From Pisolithus tinctorius (Eukaryota; Basidiomycota; Agaricomycetes; Boletales; Pisolithaceae): a stretch of DNA of 64,000 nt. This document shows, piece after piece, positions 138-36,056 of the stretch (position 1 is the first letter of the stretch; the number at the start of each line of letters is the position of its first letter). The DNA lies in the NCBI GenBank assembly GCA_024663395.1, contig JANFAH010000013.1, forward strand, positions 434,001-498,000. The letters run 5' to 3'. The translations under genes and the position numbers were made by a program. Below the pieces are notes generated by a model. The model was not told where the DNA came from. It saw nothing but the letters and a program-made list of their open reading frames with translations, and ran no database searches.

Positions 138-1425
138 CTACTCTTCCATCGCTTGTTCACCACCTTCCTGCTCCCCTTTGACTTCTTCCTCATTATCCCC
201 CTCTGCACCTTCATCTGCTTCCTCTTGCTGGCCCTCTGCCACCTCCAACTGAGGTCTCTTCCAACCTCCTCCTGCATGCTCAAACTCAGCCATCTTGGCC
301 TTGTGCACATCCTCCCTCCTCCTCATCCCTGCCCATTCTGCCCACTTGTGGTACAGCCCCCACTCATTGGCTGTCCACTCCACTGCCTCTGCCATCCACT
401 CTGCTGCCTCTGCCATCCTCTCAAAGGCAGTTGCAGCCCTCTCATGCACCTCCATGTACCTCTCCACAGCCTGCAGCTGCCTTTCCCACTCCCACTCCAC
501 CCACCATGAGGAGGCCCCCACTCCTGGGGGTCCCTTGTGTGGTGTCTCTGGCTCCTCCTCGTCTTCTCTGCCTGCCTCCTGCTCATTGTCCACTTCCTCC
601 ATCTCTGTTGCTTTCTCCTTCCCCTTTCCTCATGACCTCTTCTTCTTCTCCCATCAGGAACTTCCTGTCCCTGCTCTCTTCTGCAAGGGTCCTGCCACAT
701 TGTCCTCCTTCATCCAACTGCATGTTTTCTTCTTGTTATGGCAGGGCATGCAGTCCCTGGTCTTACCTTGCCCTGGCTTGCACTTCCCTGCCATCCGACT
801 TGCTATGCAGCAAGTGCAGGGGGCTCTCTTGGTCACAGTGACCACCACAGAGGTCCCAGGGACCCTCTGGGCAGTGTTAACATCATACACCATGCTGCTT
901 AACCTGAAATAAAATAAGGTCAGAAAAAAATAAGTCAGCTCCACCTGACTTGCAATACTCTGTCACTCACCTCTGTGTGGCCTCATTCTGCCTGGCCTGG
1001 GCCCTCTGCCTCTGTCTCTTGGCCTCTTCCACCACCACTCTCTGCCTTTGCCTCTTGGCCTCTTCCTCTGCTGCCTTCTTCCTCTGCACTTCTTCCTCCT
1101 CTCTCTGTCTCTGCTCCACTTCCAGTCACACTTCCTCCACCTTTCATCATTTGGCCTCCTCTTGCTTGGCCTTGTGCTCCCTCTCTCTCTTCTCCACCTC
1201 CTCTCACTGACAGGCTCTCTCTGCAATCTTCTCACATTCAGTATCAGTTGAGTTGTCAGTAAGGATGACCAGTGCATCGTCCACAACTTGGGAGTAGTCA
1301 CAGGAGTGGCCTGGTGTTGGCTGGGGGGTTGTGTTCTCGCACTGGAAGGACATGGTGGTGAAGGAAGAAGGTATGAGGGCTCTGTGCCCTAAACACGTGT
1401 TTTTAAGCAGTTCTTCAAACTCCAA
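138..1425 (-). pseudogene. Antisense Zn2Cys6-like accessory gene of a Gypsy element (copy 1)
   Basis: Reading leftward, a start near 1425 (or the internal Met at 1353) leads through a Ser/Thr-rich N-terminus into a Glu/Lys/Arg-rich coiled coil (about 1200-963). An intron follows (donor near 967, acceptor ttatttcag near 906). Next is a cysteine cluster at 818-720 that starts PCTCC and has spacing CX2CX8CX9CX2CX6C, then an acidic and Trp/Ala-rich helical C-terminus ending at 138. One frame holds the coiled coil, and one frame holds the zinc cluster and C-terminus. Both are interrupted only by stops that look like CGA-to-TGA changes, for example before WEKKKRS and before GKGKEK. The spacing resembles the fungal Zn2Cys6 DNA-binding domain, with slightly longer loops. 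It lies between the lost pol and the 3' LTR at 1549, antisense to the element. Role unknown; DNA binding is an inference. A free-standing host gene is the alternative. Confidence 0.6.
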
Positions 1426-1548
1426 CAGAGCTCCACCATGGCTAGACTGTTGTCCTCAAGGTATCAAAATAATTTTGAATGTTCAACTCATGTTGATCTT
1501 GTCCTGTACATGCAGCCTTCAGGGGTTCAGGCCCTAAGGGGGGGGCAC
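1426..1548 (+). other. 3' end of a Gypsy internal region with polypurine tract
   Basis: Directly before LTR D the plus strand reads CTAAGGGGGGGG then CAC, a typical polypurine tract for plus-strand priming. This makes the LTR at 1549 a 3' LTR of an element whose pol lies left of the window. No coding sequence recognised in this short stretch. Confidence 0.6.
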
Positions 1549-1914
1549 TGTCATAACTGTGCATTCACTCTGAGTCCCTACTCACTCCACACCCTCTTCC
1601 ATCACTCATTTACTCTCTCTGCACCAACTCTGCCCAACTTCTGTCAGTTGTGAGCCATCTCCACTCCAACTACTGTTGGACTTGTGTTGCTCTCCTACTG
1701 GACTGAGCGGACCATTCTCTGAGGGGTCATGTGACCACCTTTGGACTTCTCCCTGACAGCACACAGTCAGGTGCTCTGCAGCGCACACACCACATGGTCC
1801 AGCACCTGGACTGTTTCCTTTCCTGGATGTTCTATGTTACCCATTCGTATGTCCTCCATCTACCCTTCATTCATCATCTAGGAAGTTTTATTTGAAATTT
1901 TATGAGTCTCCATA

Positions 1915-3483
1915 CAGTGAGGGACAAAAGCATTGCAATGTTTGTGAGGTGTGAGTTGTCACTGATGTAGCTCAGGCTATTCTGCACAGATACTTGTGAT
2001 ACCTATACCATTGGAAAGGGGTGGCTCTAAGCTTTCCAGAGCACTAAGGTCCAGTCAAAACAAAGCAATACAAGCTGAGATACACCCTATTCTTTCCAAA
2101 AAGTGCATTGCAACACTTTTGTCCCTGACTGGTGAAATCATGAAATGTGACCTTTTGATGGGATTAAGGGCATGGAGGATGGGAAAAAATGATTACATAA
2201 TAAACCACATGATCATCCAGATGATTTGTCAGCATGTAAACAATGACAAACATTGGACTTGTACCATTAATCCTCCCTCTTTTACCACAACTTGTGAAAT
2301 CATCTCTCTAGCTCACATGGTCATTTTATCAAGGAATTCTTATCAAATACTGGTGGCCACCACAGTTCCATCAGTATAACATGCTCTCAGAACCATCAGT
2401 CCCATAAAGAACCTGCTGTCAGTCATTTCCTGGACTGTTTCCCCCCATGCCTGATGTGTTCTGGGACTAATCAGTACTTGGAAGGCTGAAAATGTTATGG
2501 AGGTCAATCTGGCACTTCAGAACATGATGTACAAACCATTCCCCTCTCAACCAATGCATTTCTGGCACATGGACAGTGGTATGGAAGTTAGGGCAAGACA
2601 AAATCCTCTTTACCCCTGAGTGTCATCAGAAGGATATGCTACTGAACTGCCATGGAGCAGAATCCTGTGCTTCCATCTGGCCCTGAATATTGCCTTTGGT
2701 CACATATGACCAAATAATCCTTCCCCAGTCATCTACAGTTCAGATCAGAGCAAGATCTAGTGAACCCTCTTATGGTGCTCAGAGCACAAGGAGGTCTTGT
2801 CTCACTCCAACTTCCATATCAGTGTTCCTGTGCCAGAAATGCATTGGTTGAGAGGGGAATGGTTTGTACATCATGTTCTGAAGTGCCAGATTGACCTCCA
2901 TAACATTTTCAGCCTTCCAAGTACTGATTAGTCCCAGAACACATCAGGCATGGGGGGAAACAGTCCAGGAAATGACTGACAGCAGGTTCTTTATGGGACT
3001 GATGGTTCTGAGAGCATGTTATACTGATGGAACTGTGGTGGCCACCAGTATTTGATAAGAATTCCTTGATAAAATGACCATGTGAGCTAGAGAGATGATT
3101 TCACAAGTTGTGGTAAAAGAGGGAGGATTAATGGTACAAGTCCAATGTTTGTCATTGTTTACATGCTGACAAATCATCTGGATGATCATGTGGTTTATTA
3201 TGTAATCATTTTTTCCCATCCTCCATGCCCTTAATCCCATCAAAAGGTCACATTTCATGATTTCACCAGTCAGGGACAAAAGTGTTGCAATGCACTTTTT
3301 GGAAAGAATAGGGTGTATCTCAGCTTGTATTGCTTTGTTTTGACTGGACCTTAGTGCTCTGGAAAGCTTAGAGTCACCCCTTTCCAATGGTATAGGTATC
3401 ACAAGTATCTGTGCAGAATAGCCTGAGCTACATCAGTGACAACTCACACCTCACAAACATTGCAACACTTTTGTCCCTCACTG
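1915..3483. mobile_element. FB1: 1,569-bp near-perfect palindrome with TA duplication
   Basis: Both halves are inverted copies of each other, about 785 bp per arm meeting near 2,699. For instance the 127-codon frame at 1996-2379 (plus) recurs at 3019-3402 (minus) with a single residue change. Termini read CAGTGAGGGACAAAAG and end CAATG at base 26. The element is flanked by TA at 1913-1914 and 3484-3485. LTR D copy 2 has the empty site with a single TA. An inverted internal copy of the terminus lies at about 2108-2133, roughly 200 bp in. No transposase is encoded. It belongs with FB2 and FB3 and is presumably moved by a Tc1/mariner transposase in trans. Confidence 0.9.
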
Positions 3484-3523
3484 TATGTCAGTTCCAATTC
3501 CAGTTACTGTACCTCTGTAGCAG

Positions 3524-3530
3524 TATAAAA
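3524..3530 (+). promoter_or_regulatory. TATA box of LTR D
   Basis: TATAAAA within LTR D, downstream of the FB1 insertion. The same site in LTR D copy 2 is split by FB3, whose TA target is part of this box. Confidence 0.55.
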
Positions 3531-3855
3531 GCATGTATCATACTCCACTGTTCTGCAGTATGAATATCAACTTAGTTCCTACTCCTTCTGCCTCCATCTT
3601 CTGTCTGTCAGAGTTACCTCTGACTCTCTCTGTCTGTACTCTCCCTCTGAAATACAAGGGCTGAGATCGTGCAAGGGGGTAGTGCATGAGCTAAACCCAA
3701 TACCCTCACTCTGCCCCACCTTTGCCTTGGTGGACTTCATTCCTGCCACCACTCTGCCAGTCAAAGTTCTGTTTCTTTGTGTCAGACTTGCTTCCAAACC
3801 ACTCTCTAGACTTTGTTTAGCATTGGAGTTGGTTGGAGTAGGCCTGGACTTGACA

Positions 3856-12236: not shown

Positions 12237-15156
12237 CACATGCACACAGCTGTTGATACTTCAGTCATCACAGTTGGCTACATCCTCTATCAGCTTGGCA
12301 AAGATGGCAAATGGTACCCTAGTCACTTTGTGTCAAGGTCACACAACACCCCTGACTTCCTCTTAGGGTGGAGTAGGAGTGGGTTGGGCTGTGGAGTACA
12401 GTGGTCAAAGTCCAAAGTGAATCTGACCACTGGGTGGCAAGATATTCAATGAACAGTGAGTGGAGGGGTATGGAGGAAAGTTTTGGAGACAGAAGTTGGA
12501 GTTGGAGTCAGAGGTCAGAGGTCAGAGGTCAGATGAGAGGGCATTGGGTTCAGCTAGTGCGCTGCCCCCTTGCATGAGCTTGGCCCTCATATTTCAGAGG
12601 TGGAGCAGACTCAGAGGGAGTGGAGACAAAACTCCAGAGGGAACTGAGAGGGAGTTGAAGGTGGGGACTTTATTCAATATTCGTACTGATTACATTGGAG
12701 TACTACATGGCCTTATATATGATGTAGGTCAAGGGCAGTGCAGTGTGGAATGTAAACCAATAAGTGTATAACAGGTTAGCAGTCCCTCTGACACAGGGGA
12801 TAGAGGGTAGGGATGATGGGGACCTTAACTGAGACAAGGAAACTACTACAATGAGGAAGAGAGGGTAAATACCAAAGGAGCAGAAGAATGGAGAAAAACT
12901 GACACAAGGGCAGAACCCTATCTAGAATGCAGGGCCACAAGTCTGACAGCCCACTGAGCTGACCAAGCCTTGGAGGAGGCACAGATGAAGGTCTGGCCTC
13001 CATGTGACCAACCTGAGGGCAGAGTTGAGTGGAGTTGGTTGGAACATGGACAGAGGACCTCAGAGAGGTGTGGAGATGTGTCGGGAGGGTCGGAGGAGCA
13101 TTGGAATGCGTTGGAGGAGGGTGGAGAAGTGTGGGAATGTGTCAGAAGAGGGCAGAGAAGCATGGGAACATGTCAGAGGAGGGCAGAGTAGGTGTTAGGG
13201 GCTTATGTCAGTGTCATGGTCATGACACTTTGGATCCATCACCCTTAACAAAGTGGAAAGCCATTACTCCCAGGCTAAGCTTGAGTTGTATGGCCTCTCC
13301 TGTGCAGTATGTGTATACATCTTCAGTCTCACTAACTTCACTGTGGAGGTAGATGTGAAGTATATTAAGGGCATGATAAATAACCCAGATTTGCAGCCTA
13401 ACACAATGATCAATTGCTGGATTGCTGGTGTCCTCCTCTTCTCATTCAAACTCATGCACACCTCCACAGACAGGCATGCTGGCCCTGATGGCTTGTCCCA
13501 CCATCCATGGTCAGAGCTTGACCTGCCCAAGGATGATGACCATGAGGATTGGTTAGACCATTTTTACTCTTTCTCTACAGAGGCTGTCAATGACCACCCA
13601 CCTCCTACATCCCTTTGCAATCAAGATCCTCATTCCTTACCACCACCTGCTTACCACCAGGCGAGCCTCCCACTGCCTGCATCCTTTCATCCTGCATTCT
13701 CTGCAACCACCCATGCTGATAACCCTTCCAATACCCCTGACTACCATGTCATTCCACAGTCTGCAAAAGCTTGGGCACATGAGACAAAGATAGAAATGAT
13801 CTGTGCATTCCTTGCAACCTGCAAGTGACCTCCTGACCTTACTGATGTGCAGTACTCATCTTTCTTTAATTTGGCCAGCCACTTCTTCCTAGATGGTAAC
13901 TTATGGCATAGGGAACCACACAGATGGCACCAGCTAGTCATCAATGAGTCCAAGCAGTATCATCTCATCAAAGAAGTGCATGATGACCTTGGACACAAAG
14001 GTGTCTTCACAGTCTGCACCCACCTTCTCCTCCACTTTTGGTGGCCCCTTCTTGTCAAGGATATGAAGTGGTATGTTTGCACTTGTCACAAATGCCAGAT
14101 CTGCCAGACACAGAAGCTTCATATCCCTCCCACTGTGCCCATGATAGGGGGCCTGTTTCACAAAGCTCACATTGACATGATGCTAATGCCCAAAGCCAGT
14201 GGCTACTGCTACATAGTACAAGCTCATTGCATGCTCACCTCATATCCTGAATGGTGCATGTTGCATGTGGAAAATAGTACCACACTTGCATCCTTTATCT
14301 TTGAGGACATTCTATGCCACTGGGGTCTGCTTGCCAAGATTGTCACTGACAATGGTCCCACATTTGTCCAAGCCTTAGAAGCCCTAGCCATGCAATATCA
14401 TATCTGTCACATCCATATCTCTCCTTACAACTCTCAGGCTAACAGCATTGTAGAGTGTTGCCACTATGATGTGCATGAGGCTATCATGAAGAGCTGCAAG
14501 AGCAATGACCACTGCTGGCACACTTCATGCACTCTGTGTTCTGGGCCAAGTGAGTCACCATCTTGAATTCCACAGGTTTATCCCCTTACTTCATGGTGCA
14601 TGGTGTTGAGCTGCTGTTTCCATTTGACCTCGCTGAGGCTACCTTCCTCTTACCCCTATCCCACAATGATGTGACACTGCTGACTACCACAGAACTGATT
14701 GCTTGGCACATGCACCAGTTACAGAAGCATCAGGATGACCTAGACCAGGTCTGTGATAGTGTCCTCCATGCATGCTTCCAGTCTATCCAGCAGTTCAAAG
14801 CCACCTTTCAGCATCGCATTAAAGACCATAACTTTGCTCCCAGCACCCTCATGCTCATTTGCAACTCCCATGTAGAGAAAGAGCTGAACCAGAAGACAAA
14901 GTCACAGTACACTGGCCCCATGGTTGTCCTTCATCAGACCACTGGGGGCTCATATCTGCTGGCTGAGTTGGATGGCTCCATCTCCAAACTCTGCTTCACT
15001 GCATTCCACCTACTTCCCTACCACCTGCAGTCTCAAACCCGCACAACCATGACTCACATCACTGGGTTAGATGATGATGAACTAGACTGCCTTCTTGAGG
15101 AGGCTGAGGATGACCCCACTGATGATGAGGTAGAGGCTTTTGCCTCAGGCAGCTGA
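12237..15156 (+). pseudogene. Gypsy C pol: RNase H and integrase, interrupted by LTR E
   Basis: RNase H starts with AVDTSVITVGYILYQLGKDG (12,246) and resumes after LTR E with LNKVESHYSQAKLELYGL and VEVDVKYIKGM. Removing LTR E and one CTTTG copy puts YPSHF next to GSIT in frame. Integrase follows: the HHCC zinc region (HDDLGHKGVF...WYVCTCHKCQ, about 13,980-14,100), then the core with HIDMML, VTDNGPTF and SIVECCHYD, so all three acidic residues are present. A frameshift or stop near 14,566 precedes the C-terminal part (YFMVHGVELLFPFDLAEATF, TKSQYTGPMVV). It ends at 15,156 in an acidic tail. No chromodomain is seen. Confidence 0.85.
12331..13227 (-). mobile_element. Solo LTR E (897 bp) inside RNase H of Gypsy C
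   Basis: On the minus strand it begins TGTCATGACC and ends CCTTGACA, close to the ends of LTR D (TGTCATAAC, GACTTGACA), so E and D are related families. A 5-bp duplication CTTTG flanks it (12,326-12,330 and 13,228-13,232). Inner sequence around 12,540-12,600 resembles LTR D (AGCTTGGCCCTCATATTTCA). No internal region is present, so it is a solo LTR. Confidence 0.9.
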
Positions 15157-15300
15157 CTATCCACCCTTTCCAGTACCCACAGTCTGTCCATCACACCCTC
15201 CCTCTGTACCCTCTTCTCCCACAATACCCATACCTCCTTCTGTGGCTTTGCCTGCCTTGCTGCAGCTTCTTCTGCTACCCTTGTTCCTTCTCCTGTGCTG

Positions 15301-15335
15301 ACTGGGGACAGTCAGCACTCAAAGTCCCCCACAGG
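15301..15335 (+). other. Stem-forming motif after Gypsy C pol
   Basis: GGGGACAGTCAGCACTCAA then AGTCCCCCACAGG can pair GGGGAC with GTCCCC. A near copy stands directly before LTR A at 17,404 and a relative before LTR B at 36,057. It marks the normal 3' end of the internal region in this Gypsy lineage; here no LTR follows. Confidence 0.6.
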
Positions 15336-16028: not shown

Positions 16029-17105
16029 CTACTCTATTCCATGCTCTGCCAGAGCCTCTGCAAGCTGCTTGATGCACACCAGCAAATGAAGGTTGGCTGC
16101 ATGCATGGCCACTGCCTCAGCCCTTACCATTCCAAGTGCCTGTGAGAGCTCTGTTGCAGCTTTGCTGCTCACCCCACCATGCACTGGTGCCTTTCCCTTG
16201 CCACACCCATGAGTTTTGACCACCTCCATGATGTCATCATTGTCATCATCATTGGTCTGCTTTGATGGACCAGCCTTTGTGGCCATTGTGGATCATGCTG
16301 TCATGTGTTAGCCTCAAATGGGTTGAGACACCTCCACTGCTTACTAACCAATGTGCTGGTCTGTGCTTTCCTGCCACCTGCTTTGCTCGACTTCTCACAG
16401 CCTTGCTTCATCTTTGCACAACCATTGCATGTCTTGCCACTTGGCCTGATGCAGGGCATTCCCTTGACAGTGCACCACGTGCAGGGCACTGCATGCAGTA
16501 CCAACCCTAGGGAGATGGAAGCCTTGGGCCATTCCTCATCATTGCTCTCAGTGACAGTCTGTCGAGATTGCTATGTTGCCAGGCCATCAGTAAAGCCACC
16601 TGACAAACTGCAGGTACTTACCCTGGGACTTCCACATGAGACATCTTCACTGCACCATCATCACTGAGCTCCACTGTGGCCTCCTCCCCCATCTGGATGT
16701 CCTGCTCAGCCTTTGTGCATGCTTCTGCCTCCTCCACAGTCCACTGTTCATAGAGATCATCAGCCTCAGCCAGTGCAGGAGCATCCTCTGTGTCAACCCA
16801 CACTGAAACCCCAAGCATCTTCCCTCACTTGACCAAGGGCATCAATACCACCTGCAGTGGTCTCATCAACCTGCATGACCACATCACTGAATGAACCTCT
16901 TACTGTCTTCTCCTCCAGTGCCTTAGTCATGTTGTCTTCTCTTCTCACATGTCCTCTCAATCATCAGGCACACATCTTGCCTCAGTGATGAGCCCTGCTG
17001 ATGCAGCCATGAGCTGCTCTCTCAAGGAAGCCTTCTCTGCTTCTGCAGGGTCTGGAGTCAATGTGCAGATGAGTTGGGACAGTTGAGGGGTGCGGTTTGC
17101 AGACA
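16029..17105 (-). pseudogene. Antisense Zn2Cys6-like accessory gene (copy 2)
   Basis: Reading leftward, the Met at 17,105 (MSANRTPQLSQLICTLTPD) opens a short helical region, then stops. An acidic stretch (LAEADDLYEQWTVEEAEA) ends at an intron donor near 16,620. The next exon carries the cluster at 16,483-16,397, PCTWC to KMKQGC, with spacing CX2CX6CX7CX2CX6C, which is the Gal4-type Zn2Cys6 spacing. The last exon (16,286-16,029) is acidic, then Gly/Lys-rich, then a helical C-terminus. The gene sits antisense between Gypsy C pol and LTR A, bracketed by two copies of the stem motif (15,301 and 17,369). In-frame stops near 16,950-16,850 suggest decay. A nuclear DNA-binding role is inferred from spacing only. 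Confidence 0.6.
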
Positions 17106-17368
17106 TGGTATGATCAAGAGAGAGGGTAGGTAAAGAGGGGGAAAGAATCAAATCAATGTGAAGGTTTAAGCCATGCACTAACAATTATATATTTAGTGGC
17201 CATCAGGTGCTTATGTCATCGGTCCAGACACCTATATGTGGCATCCAATGGTCTTCTTGCATTCCTCAGCTCCATACTTCCTTCACTTCTATGTGGAACT
17301 AATCCTTGGTACCACACCTTTGCCATCAGCATATGGCAAGCTATTTATGTCCTCTGTGCCACATGGCT

Positions 17369-17403
17369 GACTGGGGATGGCCAGCATCTAAGTCCCCCAC
17401 AGG
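17369..17403 (+). other. Stem-forming motif directly before LTR A
   Basis: GACTGGGGATGGCCAGCATC then TAAGTCCCCCACAGG, matching the motif at 15,301. It abuts the TG of LTR A, so it is the 3' edge of a Gypsy internal region. No plus-strand polypurine tract is present here. Confidence 0.6.
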
Positions 17404-17712
17404 TGTAGGGAATCCACACTCCCTGGATGCATAAGCCCCTATCATCAACTGTTCCATGACTACCATTACATCCCATCACCACTTGCATCCACCACTGTTC
17501 ATGCACTGCCTTCCTGCCTACCTTGCTACCTTCCCATGCCCTCACTTCCTCTCATGCAATGCTATACCTGCAGCCACTGTGCTCTGGTTGCTTCTTTTCC
17601 CTTGGACTCTTTCTTTTACCATAGTCTCTGTTCCTTTTGTGCTAGTAGTGTACCCACAGCCTCTGTTCTGGCCTGTCTTGTGTGTATGCACTGTCACATG
17701 CCTTTTTCCTTA
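17404..17712 (+). mobile_element. LTR A, 5' part, cut by a Tc1 element
   Basis: Begins TGTAGGGAATCCAC and follows the complete LTR A at 44,261-44,911 for about 309 bp, then is broken at a TA (17,711-17,712) by the left end of a Tc1 element. The missing 3' part is not directly downstream. CpG sites of the 44,261 copy are TpG/CpA here. Confidence 0.8.
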
Positions 17713-18281
17713 CAGTGGCTCAAAAAAGTGTCCCAATGTTGGGTGACTCTGGAAGGAGTTGAGATTTATGAGGGAGCCAATAGGAATTAGTTCAAACTCC
17801 TACAGGACAAAAGATAGTACTGGCCAGTACCTTGACAACAAGGGCTGGCTTATGTAATTTGGTTGACATGGCACCAATATATAACCATTTTAAAATGACA
17901 TATCATTGGGACACTTTTTTGAGCATGATGTTGTCAGTCATGATTTAGTAAATAACATAAAGATTTTACAGCTTCTGAGGGATTTTGTGCTTCAAACCTG
18001 ACTGATTATGTAATGTACATAATCCTGAGCCATAAAAATGGCTTGGGTCCCAGTCAGCTAACCCTACTTCACCATGAAATGCATTTTTGCCTCTGCTAGA
18101 GCAAATATCCATCTTCTTTCTGAATCTGGCCTTTCTGCTCACCAAATCTCCTTACAACTGGTCAGGGGAGCTCTACTGTGGCCAGGGTCATCCAAGAGTT
18201 CCAGCTGGATTAAGGAAAACCTCAAACTAGAACATCCTCACCAAACCTTCTTCTCCTGGCAGAGGAGAATATTCTCTAGTA
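17713..18281 (+). mobile_element. Tc1/mariner left half
   Basis: Starts CAGTGGCTCAAAAAAGTGTC with CAATG at base 26 after a TA. An inverted exact copy of most of this terminus lies at about 17,906-17,926. The transposase N-terminus follows. The half is cut at 18,281 by FB2. Its internal repeat matches its own left terminus, not the right terminus at 21,406, so the two halves probably come from different elements. Confidence 0.75.
18074..18281 (+). pseudogene. Tc1-like transposase, N-terminal helix-turn-helix fragment
   Basis: The Met at 18,074 opens a frame with ARANIHLLSESGLSAHQISL, which fits the first helix-turn-helix of Tc1-type transposases (a phrase of the GLSxxxI type). Then come WPGSSKSS and KENLKLEHPHQTFF. 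It is cut by FB2 at 18,282. The matching C-terminal part is at 20,835-21,176, but the catalytic first Asp region is not seen. Confidence 0.55.
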
Positions 18282-19854
18282 CAGTGACTCCAAAAACCCT
18301 TTCAATGTTTGCTCTAAATGGAGTGTGTGAAGTGTAGTGTGAAAAGGGGTGGGAATTTTGCTTTGCATCTCTGGGACCAAATTTAGTACTTGCTCTTGGC
18401 TACAGAATGGTACCTTTGTCACATCATTTGGCTGACAGGCAGTGGAGATATTGTTGATTTAAAACTGCAATACCATTGAAAGGGTTTTTTCACTTTTGAA
18501 TTGAAAAGGGTATTTGGAGAACCAGAAGCTGAGATCTCAGGAGGGATGGGAAAATATAATTACATAATAAACCACATGATCTTCCAGATGATTTGTCAGC
18601 ATGTAAACAATGGCAAACATTGAATTTGTACCATTAAACCTCCCTCTTTTACCACAACTCATGAAATCATCTCTCTGGCTCACATGGTCATTTCCTCAGG
18701 GAATTATTATCAAATACTGGTGCCTACCACTGTACCATCAGTATAAAATGCTCTCAGGACCATCAGTCCCTTAAAAAACCTGCTGCCAGTCAATCCCTGC
18801 ACTGTTTCCCCACCCATGCCTGATGTATTCTGGGACTAATCAATGCTTGGAAGGCTGAGAATGTTATGGAGGTCAATCTGGCACTTCAGAACATGATGGA
18901 CAAACCAATCCCCTCTTAACCAATGCATTTCTGCCACAGGGCCACTGATATGGAGGTTAGACCAAGACAAAATCCTCTTTACCCTTGGATGTCATAAGAA
19001 GGATATGCTACTGAGCAGCCATGGAGCAGAATCCTGTGCTTCCATCTGACCCTGATGATTGCCTTTGGTCACATGTGACCAAATAACCCTCCCCCAGTCA
19101 TCTGAAGTTCAGATTAGAGCAAGATTTAGTGAACCCTCTTAGGGTGCTTGGAGCACAAGGAGGTTTTGTCTCACCCTAATCTCCATATCAGTGGCCCTGT
19201 GGCAGAAATGCATTGGTTAAGAGGGGATTGGTTTGTCCATCATGTTCTGAAGTGCCAGATTGACCTCCATAACATTCTCAGCCTTCCAAGCATTGATTAG
19301 TCCCAGAATACATCAGGCATGGGTGGGGAAACAGTGCAGGGATTGACTGGCAGCAGGTTTTTTAAGGGACTGATGGTCCTGAGAGCATTTTATACTGATG
19401 GTACAGTGGTAGGCACCAGTATTTGATAATAATTCCCTGAGGAAATGACCATGTGAGCCAGAGAGATGATTTCATGAGTTGTGGTAAAAGAGGGAGGTTT
19501 AATGGTACAAATTCAATGTTTGCCATTGTTTACATGCTGACAAATCATCTGGAAGATCATGTGGTTTATTATGTAATTATATTTTCCCATCCCTCCTGAG
19601 ATCTCAGCTTCTGGTTCTCCAAATACCCTTTTCAATTCAAAAGTGAAAAAACCCTTTCAATGGTATTGCAGTTTTAAATCAACAATATCTCCACTGCCTG
19701 TCAGCCAAATGATGTGACAAAGGTACCATTCTGTAGCCAAGAGCAAGTACTAAATTTGGTCCCAGAGATGCAAAGCAAAATTCCCACCCCTTTTCACACT
19801 ACACTTCACACACTCCATTTAGAGCAAACATTGAAAGGGTTTTTGGAGTCACTG
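18282..19854. mobile_element. FB2: 1,573-bp palindrome with TA flanks
   Basis: Termini CAGTGACTCCAAAAACCC with CAATG at base 26 are identical at both ends. The arms are near-perfect inverted copies meeting near 19,068. TA flanks it at 18,280-18,281 and 19,855-19,856. An inverted internal terminus copy lies at about 18,475-18,500. The inner arm shares long stretches with FB1 (around 18,545-18,660 versus 2,175-2,290). The left flank is Tc1 transposase while the right flank is LTR A interior, so the two flanks do not form one empty site. Confidence 0.9.
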
Positions 19855-19856
19855 TA

Positions 19857-20098
19857 CATCACACATTTTGCATACTGCTGTGCACAAACTACACACACTG
19901 CTTGCACCACTTGTCATCACCAGTATTACTCTGCAGACCATGCTGCACACATCACGAATCACTACTGCTACAAAGCACTGGGTCTCACCTTCTAGTCTTG
20001 GCAGTCCAGAATCCCTTGGGATGAGCAATTCATTCCCTTCATTTTTATTGTTGCCATCTAAGCCATTTAGCTCATATTATACAGCTACTTGGACTTAT
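19857..20098 (+). mobile_element. LTR A, 3' part
   Basis: Matches the last ~240 bp of LTR A (from the CACACGTCTCGC region to the terminal CTACA). The TA just left of it corresponds to GTCTACACC in the intact LTR, so FB2, or its relative, had inserted in an LTR A copy here. Confidence 0.75.
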
Positions 20099-21988: not shown

Positions 21989-22450
21989 TGTAGGGAACAC
22001 AAACCTTTTCCCTATGAGAAGTTGCACTTCGGTTGGGTCAAAGGGAAGGTTTGAGGGTGAAGAGTGTAGGAGAGAGTTGAGGAGGATTCAGACTTAGGGG
22101 TTGTGGCTGAAAAAGACTTGGTGTTGAAAGATAGAGAGCTGACTAAGCATGTGGGTGGTCACAGTGCATTCCACATCACTTAAAAACTAGGGTACAGCAT
22201 GGACAAGAATACTGTACTAGCCATCTCTGTCTACTCTGTGCTCTTGCCTTTGGAGAGCAAACTCCAGCTCCTTTCCACCAAGGTTCTTCTTTAGAGACAA
22301 GAAATATTTTCTCAGGTGAGTTCCCTTTGCATTCATCTCAGGTACTTACCCTGCATCCAGAGCAAAGCCCCTTCAGGGTCAACCTGACTCAAGCAGAACC
22401 TACCTTGTCCAGAGTCAGAGTTCTCAGCCATCAGAAATCTCTTTCTTACA
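21989..22450 (+). repeat. LTR B, 5' copy
   Basis: Begins TGTAGGGAACACAAACC and ends CTCTTTCTTACA, 462 bp, the same length as the 3' copy at 36,057. Differences are few and mostly transitions (for example CACAAACC versus GCGAACC). Confidence 0.9.
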
Positions 22451-22452
22451 CT

Positions 22453-25295: not shown

Positions 25296-25299
25296 ATTT

Positions 25300-27916: not shown

Positions 27917-30209
27917 TGTCAAGTCCAGGCCTACTCCGACCAACTCCGACACTAAACAAGGTCTAGAGAAGGGTTCGGAAGCAAGTCTGACACAGAAGAA
28001 CAGAACTCCAACTAGCGGAGTGTCGGCAGAGATGAGGACTGCCAAAGCAAAGGTGGAATGGAGTGAGGGCATCGGGTTTAGCTCATGCACTACCCCCTTG
28101 CACAATCTCAGCCCTCGTATTTCAGAGGGAGAGTACAGATGGAGAGTCAGAGATAACTCCGACAGGCAGAAGACAGAATCAGAGGGAGTAGGAACTAAGT
28201 TGATATTCGTACTGAAGAGCAGTGGAGTACAGTACATGTTTTTACAGTGGCTCACAAAATTGTCCCAATGTTTGCATGTTTTTCATTAATCATGGTATAG
28301 CAAGTGAACTATCATTATTGAGTCCAAGGTGTTGGTGGATGGATCAAAGCAGCTGGTCATGGCTCTCTGATGAGCCATATTACATAATATTTGAGTAGAA
28401 ACTGATGACAGAATACCCAAATGAAAATGAGAGCTCATTGGGACAATTATGTAACTTTGTGATATACTGGGGATGTAGTCCTTGGGAACACATATAAAAC
28501 ATGGTGAGATACTCACCAATGCTTACATAATGTATCACATGGTCTACTGAATGATTTGTCAACAAATAAACAAAGCCAAATAGTGATTTTGCACCACCAA
28601 GCCTCCTCACTGTAACACAAGTCAAGAAGTCAGCATTCCAGCTCATCAGGGACATTCTCTCAGGGCAACCTCAGCAAATGCTGGTGTACACTATAGTATA
28701 ATCAATAGAATATGCTATCAGCATCATTGGTCTCTTCAGAAACCTGCTGGCAGTCACCTCCTGCACTGTTTCCCCACCAAAGCCCCATGTGTCCTGGGAC
28801 TAATCAGTACTGTGAGAGCTGAGAGTGATGTGGAGGTCCAATCTGGCATTCATCCTATCATGAACAAACCAATCACCCACTAACTACTACATCACAGTGG
28901 AAGAAAAGCCTGCCTGAAGGCTCAGGTGAAGCACCACCCTTCTGGGTAATCCCAGTATCATGGGAGCATTGGCCAGACTGTACTCTGAGCTGAACTGGGC
29001 ATCACTGGGAAGGAGTTATTTGGTCATATAAGACTAAAGGAATTATCCAGTGCCAGATAGAAGGCCAGGAATGTGCAACCTGGTAGCTCAGTAGCATATC
29101 CCTCCCATGGTACCTGGAGTGAGAGAGGGTTTAGCTTCACCCTGACCTCCATACCAGTTTCCCATTCACAGAAATGCACTAGTTAATGGGTGGTTGGTTT
29201 GTTCATGATAGGATGAATGCCAGATTGGACCTCCACATCACTCTCAGCTCTCACAGTACTGATTAGTCCTAGGACACATGAGGCTTTGGTGGGGAAACAA
29301 TGCAGGAGGTGACTGCCAGCAGGTTTCTGAAGAGACCAATGATGCTGATAGCATATTCTATTGATTATACTATAGTGTACACCAGCATTTGCTGAGGTTG
29401 CCCTGAGAGAATGTCCCTGATGAGCTGGAATGCTGACTTCTTGACTTGTGTTACAGTGAGGAGGCTTGGTGGTGCAAAATCACTATTTGGCTTTGTTTAT
29501 TTGTTGACAAATCATTCAGTAGACCATGTGATACATTATGTAAGCATTGGTGAGTATCTCACCATGTTTTATATGTGTTCCCAAGGACTACATCCCCAGT
29601 ATATCACAAAGTTACATAATTGTCCCAATGAGCTCTCATTTTCATTTGGGTATTCTGTCATCAGTTTCTACTCAAATATTATGTAATATGGCTCATCAGA
29701 GAGCCATGACCAGCTGCTTTGATCCATCCACCAACATCTTGGACTCAATAATGATAGTTCACTTGCTATACCATGATTAATGAAAAACATGCAAACATTG
29801 GGACAATTTTGTGAGCCACTGTATACTGCTATGGAGGTACAGTAATCAGAATCGGAACTGACATACGGAGACTCATAAATTTTCAAGTAAAATTTCCTGG
29901 ATGACGAATGAAGGGTAGACAGAGGACATACAAACAGGTAACACAGAACATCCAGAAAAGGAAATAGTCCAGGTGCTGGACCATGCGGTGAGTGTGCTGC
30001 GGAGTACCTGACTGCAAAGGTAGTCACATGACCCCTTAGAGAACGAACTGCTCAGTCCAGTAGGAGAGCAACACAAGTCCAACAGCAGTCGGAGCAGAGA
30101 TGGTTCACAACCAACAGAAGTTGGGCAGAGTTGGTGCGGAGTGAGCAAATGACCAGTGGAAGAGGGTGCGGAGTGAGTAAAGACCTAGAGTGAACGCATG
30201 GTTATGACA
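27917..30209 (-). mobile_element. Solo LTR D copy 2 in Gypsy B RT, interrupted by FB3
   Basis: Inverted relative to copy 1: in plus orientation it starts TGTCAAGTCCAGGCC and ends GGTTATGACA. A 4-bp duplication CAAC (27,913-27,916 and 30,210-30,213) flanks it. Without FB3 it is about 714 bp. It keeps CpG sites lost in copy 1 and supplies the empty site for FB1. Confidence 0.9.
28245..29821. mobile_element. FB3: 1,577-bp palindrome with TA flanks
   Basis: Termini CAGTGGCTCACAAAATTG with CAATG at base 26 are identical at both ends, and match 24 of 26 bases of the Tc1 left end at 17,713. TA flanks (28,243-28,244 and 29,822-29,823); LTR D copy 1 gives the empty site. The arms mirror each other: the frame at 28,380-28,655 recurs inverted at 29,411-29,686 without a residue change. 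An inverted internal terminus copy lies at about 28,434-28,452. The insertion splits the TATAAAA box of LTR D. Confidence 0.9.
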
Positions 30210-30213
30210 CAAC

Positions 30214-31247
30214 CCTATGACCTTTCAAATGCCAATCAGCATGTTCAGGGAGGAAACACTGGAAGTAACCATGCCATTTATTGACAACATACCAGTAAAA
30301 GGACCGCAATCGAGATACATGCATGAGGACAGGACATATGAAACAATCGAAGGGAATTTGGGAATCAGGAGGTTCATATGGGAGCACCTCATCAGTACTA
30401 ATCGAGTTCTACAGCACCTCAAGCATGTCAGAGCTACTGTCTCTGCAAAGAAATTTGCAGTGGCAGTCCTGTCTATCACCATAGTGGGACACAAGGTTTT
30501 ATACAAAGGCTGAATACCCAATGAATCCAAAGTACAGAAATTTGAGATTGGCCCTACTGCAAGAATGTCACAGAAGTGCAAGGCTTTTTAGGCCTCTGCA
30601 GCTACTGTCGCATCTTCATCTGAGACTATGCAAAAAGGGCAAAACTGTTGATTGAATTGACCAAGAAGGGAGTAGTCTTCAGATTTGACAAAGTACACAA
30701 AGCAGCAATGGACAACTTGAAGGAAGTGCTCGCCAACTTGCCAGTGTTAAAGCCAATAGACCACAAGTCAGGACAGCGAGTCATTCTGGCAGTTGACACC
30801 TCGCACATGGCAGTAGGCTACCTGCTTTTACAGGTCAGAGAAGATTTGAAATGTTATCTGTCAAGGTTTGGATCAATAGCATTCAATGAAAGGGAAAGTC
30901 ATTATAGCCAGGCAAAGCTAGAGTTGTTCGGCCTATTTCGCATGCTTTGGGACATATGCAACCACATATTTGGAGTTAAAGATTTAGCTGTGGAAGTTGA
31001 TGCTAAGTACATCAAGGGTATGATCAGTAATCCCAACCTGCAGCTGAATGCAACCATCAATCGATGGATTGCTGGTATACTCCTCTTCAAGTTTGCACTG
31101 ATACATGTACTGGCAGAAAAGCATAGAGGCCCAGATGGGTTATCAAGGAGACCTCAAGTGGATGAGGATCCAGAACTGGAGGATGATTATGAAGATTGGA
31201 TTGATGAGGTAGGATCATTCGCAGTCAAACTCCTCAACCCTCAGTGA
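30214..31247 (+). pseudogene. Gypsy B RT second half and RNase H
   Basis: RT resumes with PMTFQMPISMFREE, then MPFIDNIPVKGPQSRY, where related elements have FIDD: the second catalytic Asp is Asn here. NLGIRRFIWEHL and VSAKKFAVAVL follow. RNase H is at 30,780-31,120: LAVDTSHMAVGYLLLQV, ERESHYSQAKLELFGL, VEVDAKYIKGMISNPNLQ, GPDGLSRRPQ. A stop near 30,513 splits RT. The FIDN change alone should abolish polymerase activity. Confidence 0.8.
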
Positions 31248-31364
31248 GGTGAATGAGAAGAAGCCTTCTTTCAAAGTCAAAAGGTTGTCAAGCCCAAACA
31301 GGGATAGATCCCCTATGTTGGAGAGCAGAGATCAGAGAGGTCAAGAGAAGCGACCAAGACCCAG

Positions 31365-32850
31365 GTGGTTTTATCACAGACATCGGGGACAGATGCTACC
31401 ACTGATATAGAAATCCCCAGGACAGAGAAAGGGAAGTGGCAAGACAAATGGTTGGAGGTAGTTTGCAAGTTCCTCGAAGATCAACAGCAACTGCCTGGAA
31501 TGTCAGACTTAGATCTGAACTTGTTAATCAAATATGCGGCAAGATTCTTCTTGAAGAATGGAGAACTATGGCACCAGGAACCGAGGGGACAGCATCAAGT
31601 AGTACCCACATACAAGAAATGCCTGGAGTTGATGAAGCAAGTGCACGATGATTTGGGTCACAATGGAGTATTCCCCACTAAGTCAAGATTACTGATTCAC
31701 TTTTGGTGGCTGTCACTAGATCGAGACATTCAATGGTTCCTCTGTACCTGCCATGAGTGTCAAATTCGATGCATGGACAAGATCCATATCCCACCTGTCA
31801 TAGCCATGCCTGAGCCTCTGTTTTACAAGGCATACATGGATTTGATGGTGATGCTGAAGTTGAATGGGTTCTGGTACATAGTACAAGCTAGGTGTTCTCT
31901 GACTTCATATCCTGAGTGGCAGATGCTGTGTGCAGAGACAGGACAAACCCTAGGATGATTCATATTCAAACAGATCTTGCGTCAGTGGGGTGCCATGGGG
32001 GAGATTGTCATGGAAAATGGCTCCATGTTCAAACATGCCCTTGCCTACCTTGTGAAGAAGTATGATATCAGGCATATAAAGATTTCAGCATACAATTCTC
32101 AAGCCAATGGGGTTGTCGAGAGAAGACATGTGACAGTTCAAGAAGCTCTTGTCAAGACTTGTGAAGGTGAAATAGGCAAATGGTCATCATATGCACTGTT
32201 GGTGTTCTGGGCTGAAAGGGTGATGACACAAAAGTTGATGAAACTTTCACCATATCAGATGGTCCATGGGATCAAGCCAAGATTGCTGTTCAACTTTGCC
32301 AAAGCAACTTTTCTGTTGAATTGGGACAAGGATAAGTATTTGACCAAAGAACTGATATTGTATAGGTGCTACCAGCTGCAGCAAAGACAGGAAGACTTAC
32401 AGCAGGTTCGTCAACAAGTATACAAGGCATGGTGCCAGACAGCAAAGGAGTTCGAGCAGAGGGTGAAAGGGTTGATACAAAGCTACGAGTTTGAACCTGG
32501 AGTGCTAGTCTTAGCTTGCAATATGAGAATTGAGAAGGAACTCAACTGCAAGACAAAGCCAAGATACTTAGGCCCTATGGTAGTCATCAGGCAAACTGAA
32601 GGGGGTTCATACCTATTAGCTGAGCTTGACGGCTTGATTTCCTGACTTCGATATGCTGCTTTTCGCTTACACCCTTATTACTCTAGGAAACGAATCTTAA
32701 TAGTGGTAGAAGAACTCACAAACCAAAGTGAAGAAGAGCTGTGTAGGCTCGAAGAGGAATCAATAGAGGATGAATCGATCCCCAAAGCTGAAGGCATCTT
32801 ACAAGAAAAGGACATTGAAGAGAGTGAGTCAGGTGAGAGTATCTGAACCT
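31365..32850 (+). pseudogene. Gypsy B integrase
   Basis: HHCC region QVHDDLGHNGVFPTKSRLLI with FLCTCHECQIR (31,640-31,770). The core has YMDLMVML (first Asp), then a stop at about 31,957 and IVMENGSMF, where the second Asp of the usual TDNG motif is Glu. VVERRHVTVQEALVK keeps the last Glu. The C-terminal part (HGIKPRLLFNFAKATFLLNW, LNCKTKPRYLGPMVV) ends in an acidic tail at about 32,845. Inactive by stop and by the altered second catalytic residue. Confidence 0.8.
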
Positions 32851-32956: not shown

Positions 32957-32978
32957 AAAAAAAAAAAAAAAAAAAAAA
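32957..32978 (+). repeat. A22 tract between pol and antisense gene
   Basis: A pure run of 22 A on the sense strand about 110 bp after the pol stop and before the end of the antisense accessory gene. It has the same position as the A15 tract at 113-127. Confidence 0.9.
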
Positions 32979-33092
32979 GTCACAGCTTTTGAATGATTCA
33001 ATAAGTGCTGATCAATTCTGTGTTGGACAGGGATATACATGAGGTACGATGATGGGGCTGTTGAAGCCCAGAAAAGAGATAGTGCAAGGTAC

Positions 33093-34496
33093 TTAATTGT
33101 GCAATTTCCTCTTGCCCAACACCTTCTCAGACATGACATGGCCCTTTGAGGCCTGGTCTAACACTTCAGTTGTGGCATGAAGGGCTTTGTGAAGCATGAC
33201 CAGCATCTCAGCATTGGAAAGCGAAGGCAGCGAAGGAGAGGAACTAGAAGTCAAGGGAGTTGGTGCCAAGTTAGAAGAGGATGCGCCAGAAGTCAAAGGA
33301 GGAGGAGGACTGGGAGATGGAGACTTGACATGAGTGCGTTTCGAAGTGCGAGCAGGCCTTTGAGTGATTTTGATGACAGGCTTGGCAGGGTACCAAGGAG
33401 GAGTGAGAACTGGAGGAGTAGAGCCCATGCAAAGTGCCTGGACCCAGGCTTGGGACTGCACCAAGTTGTTCTGGAGTGGTGTCAGCAAGATGCTTTAGGA
33501 TGAAAAGAGAGCAAGCAACACACATGTATAAAGGACAAGTATAGCAAAGTTGACAACAATGTGTGCATTTGAGCCCCAAGGCTCCAGAGCAGATGGCTTG
33601 AGCAACATGACAACAGTCACAGGGGATGGGTGGGTAGATGGGGAAACCGCCATCCTTTGAAGTACATTCAACAAGTTCAATGTGCCAGTTGGGACAGTAG
33701 ACATGCCATTGGAGACTGGACTCCCCAAGATGGTCTGCATTCTGGATCTTGAGAAGTCAGCTAGGGGATGAAGAAGAATGAAAGAAGCTAAAACTCACTG
33801 AAGGGTGGTCGAGGGACACATGGCCAGTCAATGGAGAGTTGGCAGGAAGATGATCAAGGCCAGGCTTGGAAGCATTGAGTGCCTGGTGGGTGGGTGTGGT
33901 AGGATCTGCAGGCGCAGCAGTGTCTGGGACAGAGACCAGATGATTGGGCGAGACAGTTGGTGTGAGAGGAGATGGAGGGTCCAAGGGACCTGGGAGCAAG
34001 GGAGAGGGCATATGAGAAGGTGCAATGGTGGATGTGGACATGGATGTGGATGATGGAGTGTCCAGGAGTGTGTTGAAGGTGGGAAGGTCAAGAGCAGGGC
34101 TAGGGTCTGGTTCCTGGATGACAATGGTCACAGGTGTGGGCTCTGCGGGGGTGTGGTTGACCAGGGCAGTGGTAGTAGCAGGAGCCAGTTTGTCTTGGAC
34201 AACGTCAACAGGAAGAGTGTTGACTGGTAGCACAGGAGAAGAGACAACTTGAGGTTCAGGGGCTGGAGGAGCCAGCAATGGGCCCTGTGATGATGGGTGG
34301 TGTCAACAGAATGACTGTCAAGGAAAGGAAAAAGACCATGCACCATCAGAGACCCCAGGCATGCTAACAGCACATTTCTTGACTCTGTATCTCCTTGCAA
34401 CAATCCCAGCAAGAGCTGGAGGACAGAGGCAGTGCAAGCGAGGTCATCAGCTGGGATGCCAATGTTGGGAGGCGAGTTGTTGGGGTTGGACAACAT
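33093..34496 (-). pseudogene. Antisense Zn2Cys6-like accessory gene (copy 3)
   Basis: Reading leftward, the Met at 34,496 (MLSNPNNSPPNIGIPADDL) opens a helical start. A long Pro/Ser/Thr-rich linker follows (34,278-33,757), then a frame with WHIELVECTSKDGGFPIYPP running into the cluster at 33,621-33,535: PCDCC ... LKCTHCC ... C, spacing CX2CX6CX7CX2CX6C, identical to copy 2. After a junction near 33,500 a Ser/Pro-rich C-terminus ends with a helix (MLVMLHKALHATTEVLDQ) and KRK. Frames change between exons and not all splice sites could be placed, so it may be decayed. It lies antisense between Gypsy B integrase and LTR B. The PCxCC start is shared with copy 1. Confidence 0.6.
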
Positions 34497-36011
34497 GGGA
34501 GTGAGGGCGAGAAAGAGGAAGATGAGGGAGGAAAAATGGAAGGAACATGTGGGGTAGCTTAGATAAGAAGAAGAGGAAAATGGTGGGAAGTTGATTGAAA
34601 CAGATTGATTATCACCAGAAATTGGAACCTTCACTTGATGCAGCAGCAGTCTTACAGTCACGATGCACTCAAAGAGCCATGGCGCTCTTGCCATATTCTA
34701 GTTTATTTTCCCTTTGTGTTATGACACTCACTAATGCTCTACACTAGGAAAGACAACAGTCTGGATTCACACAAGCAAACTAAGTACAAAGGATAACAGC
34801 TGGCTGTGAAGGAAACACTAGACCACACAACATTCTCAGAGCTGTTGCACATCTAGGAAGGGTCACTACAGGAGAGGTATGCAGAGCTGGAACAAGTGAG
34901 AAGAGACATGAACCAAGTAGAAGCGACACTGGAAGAGAAGCTTAACCAGGGAAGCTGTGCAAACAGGTGACCTTTTCCATTTTGATTCGAATGTGTTTTA
35001 CAGTGAGGGTCAGGTACCTCAGCACAAGAAAAAAGTGGATCAATGGGGGGTGAATGTCTGAGGTCAAGCAAGGGCCTGTATTTGCACCTGTTGAGGTCGA
35101 AGACCTATCTTCGAAGCAGAATCGAGAGGCTACAACTTCAAGGTGAGGTATTCTATTGTAGTTCGAATGTAAACTATGTTGAAGTGTTTTGTTTTCAGTG
35201 TTGGAAAAGGCAGAAAGCAGAAATGGAAAGCTCTCGGAGGTACATATGAAGAGACAGGATACTAGAAATGCGAGTTGAAGGCTGCTGGTATCATTATGCA
35301 CCACAAAATTCGTTCCTGTGCATGGAGCACAAGTCCAGGAGTCAAGAAGGCAGGGCCAGAGTACCATAGAAAGAATGCAGTATAGGGCAGAAGGAGTCTC
35401 CTGGGGGCTCAAGCTTTTGTTTTTCTTGGTTTCATTTCCACTAAGTCATCTTAAGGATGAAATGGAGTCGAGAGCACACAATGCACTCTTGTAGAATTGT
35501 GAATATGTCACTGATAGAGGGTTTACAAGTATAAAATAATCTTTGAGCTGGGTCGTATGTACAAAGGGTCTCTACCCCCAGCTGCTGCACTGTGTAAATG
35601 CTCCATCACAGCTCTACCACCAGCTGCATTTCAATGAGCCATCCCTACCTTGCTCTGCACTTGAGCTGTCACTCACTTGTCTGTGCATTTGAAGCACTCT
35701 GGTCATCGCTTGGGCAGGAAGGTTAGCTTCAGAGGTGTGGAGAATCGAAGGCACTAGGTGATGGAGAAGGTACAGGAGAGTTGGTTGCAAGGGGTCTTGG
35801 AGACATTGGTGAGACTAAGGGAGAGGTTCAAGGAGCACAGTGCAGGTTCAGGATCAAAGGGGTGCATTGATGGAGGAAGAGGTGGCTGAGTGTGGGGTAG
35901 AAGGTGGTGTGAGGTACAGCAAGCAAGGGGAAGGCTAGGGGAGTCAGAGGGCAAAGGTGCGAAGGAGAAGTTGGTGAAGATGGGTATGAAGCCAAGGACG
36001 TCTATGCGAGG
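34497..36011. other. Segment between accessory gene and LTR B
   Basis: Mostly unassigned. A plus-strand coiled-coil-like frame (RYAELEQVRRDMNQVEATLE) lies at about 34,875-34,935 and a possible small exon pair with a 56-bp intron at 35,143-35,198. Both are too short to call a gene. The antisense gene's promoter would lie in its left part. Confidence 0.35.
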
Positions 36012-36056
36012 AAGGGGGATGACCAAGGATGGTCAGCGTCTAAACCCCCCCTCGGA
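36012..36056 (+). other. Stem-forming motif before the 3' LTR of Gypsy B
   Basis: AGGGGGATGACCAAGG then ATGGTCAGCGTCTAAACCCCCC ahead of LTR B. It shares GGTCAGCGTCTAAA-CCCCC with the motifs at 15,301 and 17,369. The sense strand is C-rich where a polypurine tract is expected. Confidence 0.5.

What the first reader, a model, noticed from the sequence alone, without database searches (positions are those of the whole stretch)
138..36056. Three Gypsy elements carry an antisense gene with a Zn2Cys6-type cluster next to the 3' LTR
Seen: minus-strand genes at 138-1425, 16,029-17,105 and 33,093-34,496 each lie between a plus-strand Gypsy pol (or its expected place) and a 3' LTR (D, A and B). Each has one six-cysteine cluster: CX2CX6CX7CX2CX6C in copies 2 and 3, CX2CX8CX9CX2CX6C in copy 1, starting PCxCC or PCTWC. 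Each ends in a helical C-terminus. Known: Gal4-type zinc clusters of fungi use CX2CX6CX5-12CX2CX6-8C. Inference: these elements carry an antisense, possibly self-regulating or targeting, DNA-binding protein. Plant Gypsy elements with antisense ORFs near the 3' LTR are known; I do not know of a described fungal Zn2Cys6 case. This is my best candidate for an undescribed system.
Basis: partly seen in the sequence, partly recalled or inferred. Interest (0 to 1): 0.85.

Follow-up and report, generated by a model that had tools for sequence, protein, structure and literature searches.

The report
Antisense zinc-cluster gene in fungal retrotransposons
Three families of virus-like jumping genes in a root-symbiont fungus each carry, backwards near their right end, an extra intron-bearing gene that natural selection has preserved and that looks like a yeast-type DNA-binding protein, much as some human retroviruses hide a regulator on their opposite strand.

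Summary
The window lies in a Pisolithus tinctorius assembly. All three minus-strand genes belong to Gypsy elements, between pol and 3' LTR: family 1 beside a chromodomain-like integrase end, families 2 and 3 in another lineage. I examined 30, 28 and 9 copies. Start codons and splice sites are kept in most copies of families 1 and 2. Antisense-frame dN/dS is 0.13-0.29 (0.23-0.47 in the small family 3); most wrong frames give 0.75-1.27, pol 0.21. Eight of eight loci chosen by pol alone carry the gene, one only its first exon. Each family encodes a six-cysteine cluster and a helix. A blind fold search with the family-1 model returned only GAL4 (E 4.9), weakly; family 2 matched only helical bundles. 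None of 11 proteins scanned passes Pfam's Zn2Cys6 cut-off, so I call it Zn2Cys6-like. The likeliest role is a dimeric DNA-binding regulator of its own element; expression and binding are not shown. Antisense pol-3'LTR genes are known in plants (Retand, Grande), fungal Boty (brtn) and HTLV (HBZ). A conserved, spliced zinc-cluster version in several basidiomycete Gypsy families is a new variant.

The parts
138..1353 (-). Antisense gene, family 1 (copy 1): exon 1 about 1353-970, intron about 969-906, exon 2 about 905-138 with the cluster CX2CX8CX9CX2CX6C; broken by in-frame stops
   Evidence: translation; tblastn with P0001
1481..1498 (.). Conserved dyad upstream of the family-1 gene (GATCAAC-N4-GTTGATC, one mismatch between the arms here)
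1549..3855 (+). 3' LTR (D) of the copy-1 element, interrupted by a palindromic MITE-like insert at 1911-3487
   Evidence: 5' LTR partner at L069 1265-2001, 91-92% identical
13847..15156 (+). pol 3' part of the copy-2 element: integrase H2C2 (over cut-off), rve (26.7 bits, under its cut-off of 32.6) and C-terminus
   Evidence: ORFs; Pfam
15298..15315 (.). Downstream copy of the family-2 dyad, beyond the pol stop
   Evidence: position converted from L009; the 44-bp repeat around it was shown in six other loci
16029..17106 (-). Antisense gene, family 2 (copy 2): four exons by homology, cluster CX2CX6CX7CX2CX6C near 16,486-16,397, helical C-terminus; exon 1 has stops
17367..17384 (.). LTR-side copy of the family-2 dyad, upstream of the antisense gene, imperfect here
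17404..18278 (+). Start of 3' LTR (A) of the copy-2 element; right end not resolved because of the MITE-like insert 18279-19857
21989..22452 (+). 5' LTR of the copy-3 element (B)
   Evidence: 90% identical to 36057-36520
30648..32645 (+). pol 3' part (RNase H, integrase H2C2, C-terminus) of the copy-3 element
   Evidence: Pfam
33093..34496 (-). Antisense gene, family 3 (copy 3): N-terminal exon, Pro-rich exon, cluster exon (PCDCC... at 33,624), last helical-looking exon; exact introns not determined
35097..35114 (.). Family-3 dyad TCGAAGA-N4-TCTTCGA, about 600 bp upstream of the start codon
36057..36520 (+). 3' LTR of the copy-3 element (B)

Best explanation
At least two Gypsy lineages of Pisolithus carry an accessory gene on the antisense strand between pol and the 3' LTR (shown). 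The gene starts about 0.2-1.6 kb inside the 3' LTR and runs towards pol. It keeps its short introns because the sense RNA that is reverse-transcribed does not splice them (the reason is inferred from established retrotransposon biology). In families 1 and 2 it encodes a protein of about 320-370 aa with a six-cysteine cluster, a basic linker and helices (sequence shown; structure predicted); the full family-3 protein was not determined. Most likely it dimerises through a helix, binds DNA through the cluster and regulates transcription of its own element family, perhaps through the conserved dyads between its start codon and the 3' LTR. That would be a functional parallel of HTLV HBZ and of the suggested role of plant TRP28 proteins. 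The regulatory role, zinc binding, the dyads as targets and antisense transcription are inferred.
Against: No expression or binding data. None of 11 antisense proteins scanned passes the Pfam PF00172 cut-off; the best is family 3 with 16.4 bits against 21. None of the genome's 32 PF00172 hits lies within 2 kb of 265 of the 345 antisense-cluster places listed. The GAL4 match is weak. The family-2 model matched only helical bundles. Against a profile of six classical clusters of this genome, family 3 scored 47%, family 1 20% and family 2 7% probability. Families 1 and 2 lack the basic stretch that classical members carry after Cys2 (recalled feature). The dyads were found after the fact, have no shared half-site, other dyads of similar quality occur in the same stretches, and in family 2 only 7 of 22 gap-free copies are perfect. 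The family-2 dyad is part of a repeat with the likely polypurine tract, so it could serve reverse transcription. Intron positions of family 2 read as codons gave 0.495, so part of the frame contrast comes from base composition.
Confidence: 0.6

Rival explanations
1. The protein acts on host chromatin or on host silencing of the element, or guides integration, and not on its own promoter; the cluster is a DNA- or chromatin-binding anchor.
For: The element-borne position, selection and predicted DNA-binding-like fold fit equally well. Family 1 also has a chromodomain-like end of integrase, an independent chromatin tether.
Against: Conserved sequence between gene start and LTR suggests local cis sites, but this is weak.
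Confidence: 0.25
2. The antisense RNA matters, not the protein: it forms double-stranded RNA with the pol transcript and feeds RNA silencing.
For: Convergent arrangement: in locus L060 the family-1 gene stops about 225 bp from the end of the pol frame.
Against: dN/dS of 0.13-0.29 in families 1 and 2, near 1 in most wrong frames, and conserved ATG, splice sites and stop show selection on the protein.
Confidence: 0.07
3. A passenger host zinc-cluster gene that was captured by chance and only copied along.
For: Zn2Cys6 genes are common in fungal genomes; 32 PF00172 hits here.
Against: Found in three element families of at least two Gypsy lineages, with a constraint like that of pol, and with relatives named from P. 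orientalis, microcarpus, albus, croceorrhizus and thermaeus (whether those lie in elements was not tested).
Confidence: 0.03
4. A nucleic-acid chaperone or nuclear-import factor for the element's own RNA or cDNA, with the cluster binding nucleic acid without sequence preference.
For: Basic stretches beside the cluster (GEKKKR... in family 1); the plant Grande antisense protein is nuclear (PMC7264820, passages).
Against: Antisense expression would make it under separate control from gag-pol; the weak fold matches are to specific DNA binders.
Confidence: 0.05

Closest known systems
[quoted passage not shown]
   Same: Same place and orientation; present in most copies; suggested DNA-binding or nuclear regulator; function unknown (PMC7264820, PMC11963269, passages read)
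   Different: TRP28 (PF04195) did not appear in the Pfam scans of these proteins; here a six-cysteine cluster, conserved introns, a fungal host, and a chromodomain-type lineage as one carrier (the abstract of PMC11963269 calls Retand non-chromovirus)
Boty-like elements of Botrytis and Sclerotinia with antisense gene brtn (Zhao et al. 2011; paper not held, seen only as cited in PMC7264820, PMC8365987, PMC4227169)
   Same: Fungal Gypsy element with chromodomain and an additional antisense gene
HTLV-1 HBZ and relatives
   Same: Antisense gene at the 3' LTR encoding a spliced, nuclear, transcription-factor-type regulator (PMC10186651, passages)
   Different: HBZ is a bZIP protein of a retrovirus; no sequence relation is claimed; function here unproven
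Fungal Zn2Cys6 regulators (GAL4, PPR1)
   Same: Six-cysteine spacing (families 2 and 3), cluster-linker-helix order, weak fold match for family 1
   Different: Below the Pfam cut-off; family 1 has longer loops; the basic residues sit mainly in the second half in families 1 and 2; no cluster match for the family-2 model

Membership tests
Zn2Cys6 binuclear cluster (PF00172) | The same spacing: family 1 | tested here: not met
   CX8 in place of CX6 between Cys2 and Cys3
Zn2Cys6 binuclear cluster (PF00172) | Score above Pfam's gathering cut-off (21 bits) | tested here: not met
   0 of 11 proteins scanned: family 3 16.4 bits; family-1 relatives P0198 and P0207 9.7 and 8.1; the rest no match. UniRef nevertheless names 26 of the 112 proteins Zn(2)-C6 fungal-type (my count from the listing)
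Zn2Cys6 binuclear cluster (PF00172) | Binuclear cluster fold | tested here: inconclusive
Antisense accessory gene of LTR retrotransposons (aORF-3R) | Antisense ORF between pol and 3' LTR | tested here: met
Antisense accessory gene of LTR retrotransposons (aORF-3R) | Present in most copies with conservation like that of other element proteins | tested here: met
   8 of 8 pol-selected family-1 loci; family-1 dN/dS 0.13-0.25 against pol 0.21
Antisense accessory gene of LTR retrotransposons (aORF-3R) | Antisense transcription | not testable with these tools
   no RNA data
Retand TRP28 antisense protein | TRP28 domain PF04195 | tested here: not met
   no such match among the 11 antisense proteins scanned
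Boty brtn | Sequence homology to BRTN | not tested
   paper and sequence not held
Chromovirus (family-1 element) | Integrase followed by chromodomain | tested here: inconclusive
   L086: rve 42.5 and SH3_Tf2-1 48.7 bits above cut-off; Chromo 23.4 bits, just under its cut-off of 25.1
HBZ-like regulator | bZIP domain | tested here: not met
   no bZIP match in the Pfam scans; parallel of position and kind only

The most novel reading that the evidence does not exclude
Several Gypsy families of one basidiomycete genus rely on antisense-encoded Zn2Cys6-like dimeric regulators. Each family's protein binds its own conserved dyad with a 4-base spacer between gene start and 3' LTR; in family 2 this is CTGACCG-TCCC-CGGTCAG, which contains an everted CCG-N4-CGG. 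Together they form an element-encoded feedback switch, the fungal counterpart of HBZ. In family 2 the 44-bp repeat at the pol end is the scar of the event that added the gene.
Probability: 0.3. Interest if true: 0.8.

Novelty: new variant of a known kind. Interest (0 to 1): 0.63.

Why it matters
Why LTR retrotransposons in distant hosts keep an antisense gene at the 3' LTR is an open question; the two plant papers seen state that the function is unknown. Here there is a clear protein-level signal: introns, purifying selection and a DNA-binding-like cluster, in a fungus whose genome has been swollen by Gypsy elements (8,434 Gypsy copies, 19% of the assembly, in a table row of PMC5689174, passages read). 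A zinc-cluster regulator with candidate short sites is directly testable by DAP-seq or a one-hybrid assay, so the general question becomes testable. It also warns annotators: the searches listed 74 and 112 related proteins, named hypothetical or Zn(2)-C6, of which many are probably parts of transposons.

Tried and rejected
Free host genes: rejected, because most copies examined lie in the expected antiparallel place beside pol and LTR. Chance ORFs: rejected by dN/dS and splice-site conservation. Homology by database: three protein searches listed relatives named only from the genus Pisolithus, apart from one entry without a name; the method needs shared 5-residue words and one search scored a capped 7,997 candidates, so wider spread is not excluded. 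PDB sequence search with family 2 gave nothing relevant (one match, E 0.38). The family-2 model gave only helix-bundle matches in the rows shown. Profile comparison: families 2 and 3 match on the cluster (93%) and whole proteins of families 1 and 2 weakly (E 3e-4, probability 38%); cluster profiles of family 1 against 2 or 3 give nothing (1.5% and 0.9%); against six classical clusters of this genome families 3, 1 and 2 give 47%, 20% and 7%. These cluster sets were picked by their cysteine pattern, which favours alignment. The 44-bp repeat found in 6 of 6 family-2 loci tested was not found in 4 family-1 loci or in the family-3 window copy. In one search two family-2 rows ('exon3' and 'last exon') were read out of phase and are superseded; the pol control failed to print and was redone on 24 of 30 family-1 loci (six dropped). 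In one search the family-2 introns read as codons gave 0.495. Literature: searches returned no listing that described a fungal zinc-cluster antisense gene in an LTR element; I judged by titles, abstracts and the passages read, not whole texts, and the library lacks most subscription journals.
Full report
What is there. The window (G000:C13:434,001-498,000 of a 92.5-Mb assembly) comes from Pisolithus tinctorius: the antisense proteins match that species' records at up to 96%, and one such record lies on a contig of 6,752,466 bases, the length of contig C1. The three minus-strand genes are real and placed as described. Copy 1 belongs to an element whose pol lies just left of the window. Its 5' LTR (C13:427,265-428,001) is 91-92% identical to the 3' LTR that starts at window 1,549. 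Copy 3 lies in an element with 90% identical LTRs at 21,989-22,452 and 36,057-36,520. The left end of the copy-2 element was not resolved.

Genome-wide families. Searches with the cluster exons gave 150 scored matches for family 1 (of 357 candidates), 150 for family 2 (of 203) and 45 for family 3 (of 49; some are pieces of one place). Of 30 family-1 loci fetched (window copy included), 28 have the LTR and 29 the chromodomain end of pol, antiparallel and at similar distance; L043 lacks the LTR, L040 has only its inner side, L050 lacks the pol end. Of 30 family-2 loci, two had no intact cluster and were dropped; of the other 28, 23 have the LTR (in L022 displaced) and 22 the integrase. Family 3: 8 of 8 fetched loci have the integrase, and 3 of 4 upstream stretches hold the LTR. 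A few pairs are probably the two haplotypes of one place (for example L046 and L047). These loci were the best matches to the antisense gene, so I also sampled by pol alone: the 8 best chromodomain hits (one is the window's own, out of 1,516 candidates) all carry the gene, L084 only its first exon. By coordinates, 68 of 150 family-1 pol hits have a listed partner 0.6-1.4 kb downstream on the other strand, and one more lies in the same order at 2.9 kb. For family 2 it is 97 of 150 at 1.0-2.5 kb, two more in the same order further out, and four in other arrangements within 6 kb. All lists were truncated, so these are lower bounds.

Gene structure and selection. Family 1 has two exons: ATG, donor and acceptor in 30 of 30 copies, stop in 28 of 30. 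Family 2 has four exons with 47-52-bp introns: ATG 25 of 28, splice sites 24-28 of 28. The resulting 322-aa model equals the length of the public model P0075 at 94% identity. Antisense introns can survive retrotransposition because the sense RNA does not splice them (inference from established biology). Pairwise dN/dS (Nei-Gojobori; pairs are not independent) for family 1, 30 copies: cluster 0.127, exon 1 0.203, exon 2 0.234; wrong frames 0.79-1.26, except 0.37 for one sense-strand frame, the one whose third positions mirror those of the antisense frame. Family 2, 25 of 28 copies (three twins dropped): 0.242 overall, 0.164 for the cluster, exons 1 and 2 0.205 and 0.288, wrong frames 0.80 and 1.14; exons 3 and 4 0.211 and 0.252 in phase, exon 4 out of phase 0.77 and 1.27. 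Family 3, nine close copies: 0.23-0.47; wrong frames, tested for the cluster exon only, 0.75 and 0.89. The pol chromodomain of 24 of the family-1 loci gives 0.213, out of phase 0.86 and 1.03. The family-2 introns read as codons give 0.495, so base composition explains part of the contrast, but not the drop to 0.13-0.29. The loci were chosen by the cluster, but exon 1 and the C-terminus, outside the family-1 query, show the same signal. So the antisense protein has been constrained about as much as pol.

Cis sites. Between the family-1 start codon and the polypurine tract lies GATCAAC-N4-GTTGATC, perfect in 26 of 29 gap-free copies. In family 2 there is GCTGACCG-TCCC-CGGTCAGC, perfect in 7 of 22 gap-free copies (of 25 aligned), with most differences at its CpG positions. 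In family 3 there is TCGAAGA-N4-TCTTCGA, perfect in 7 of 9 copies, which are too similar to say much. The family-2 core was found with up to two mismatches near the LTR in 20 of 25 loci and again about 150 bp beyond the pol end in 18 of 25. There it is part of a 44-bp repeat that includes the likely polypurine tract and the LTR edge (6 of 6 loci tested). I read the repeat as a likely scar of the event that added the antisense cassette (inference). It may instead be a second priming site. That all three dyads have a 4-base spacer is striking, but it was noticed afterwards, and other dyads exist in the same stretches. The resemblance to CCG-N4-CGG sites of Leu3 is recalled, not tested.

Comparison with what is known. 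[quoted passage not shown] In fungi, Boty-like elements carry the antisense gene brtn (Zhao et al. 2011, known to me only through citing papers). HTLV HBZ is the best understood case (PMC10186651). Of these I read passages, the abstract of PMC11963269 and two sections of PMC7264820. The genome paper on Boletales reports the Gypsy expansion of P. tinctorius; a word search of its text found no 'antisense' (PMC5689174). So the kind is known, and the zinc-cluster version in several basidiomycete Gypsy families is a new variant. The RNase H regions of the copy-1 and copy-3 elements are only 22% identical over 98 residues, while the Gypsy element at 53-61 kb, closer to copy 1 (37%), shows no match to the eight antisense proteins searched. 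The gene therefore does not simply follow pol phylogeny: loss, exchange or repeated acquisition is possible.

Mechanism. Shown: location, gene structure, selection, cluster sequence. Predicted: fold and helices. Inferred: expression from a promoter inside the leader (a conserved CTTAAAAACA...TGTTA stretch ends about 35 bp before the family-1 ATG), dimerisation, zinc and DNA binding, and feedback control. I put 0.6 on a DNA-binding regulator of the element itself and 0.25 on action on host chromatin or silencing.

Noticed in passing
window 1911-3487, 18279-19857, 28243-29823: Three 1.58-kb palindromes (arms of about 700 bp, 96-99% complementary), the one at 1911 with TA-flanked CAGTGAGGGACAAAAG ends; they look like Tc1/mariner-type foldback MITEs (recalled type), and at least two sit inside LTRs of the same family.
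   Followed up: partly
window 53938-54441 (-): The Gypsy element at 53.4-61.6 kb has, after its chromodomain-like end (by eye), an extra sense-strand ORF with a run of Cys/His (CYVCC...CPLC...) where the other elements have the antisense gene.
   Followed up: partly
L002, L003, L005 (C7, C25, C13): A 275-aa classical Zn2Cys6 gene (PF00172 over cut-off) is repeated with 3.1 kb of 98-99% identical surroundings, so it probably rides on another recent mobile element or duplication.
   Followed up: partly
window 38347-39320: Array of about 15 copies of a 65-bp tandem repeat.
   Followed up: no
family-2 loci, e.g. L035 603-645 and 2827-2870 (gene strand): 44-bp direct repeat of likely polypurine tract, LTR edge and dyad flanking the antisense gene; possible acquisition scar or second plus-strand priming site.
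   Followed up: partly
L060 LTR, about 678-695 in the sense stretch: Imperfect dyad near GTTGGAGTTATCTCCGAC downstream of a TATAAAA box in the family-1 LTR (a perfect form in 5 of 28 loci); would fold as a hairpin in the sense transcript.
   Followed up: no
window 49942-51800 and 56825-58680: Inverted 1.86-kb copies, 90% identical; the second lies within the 53-61 kb Gypsy element.
   Followed up: no
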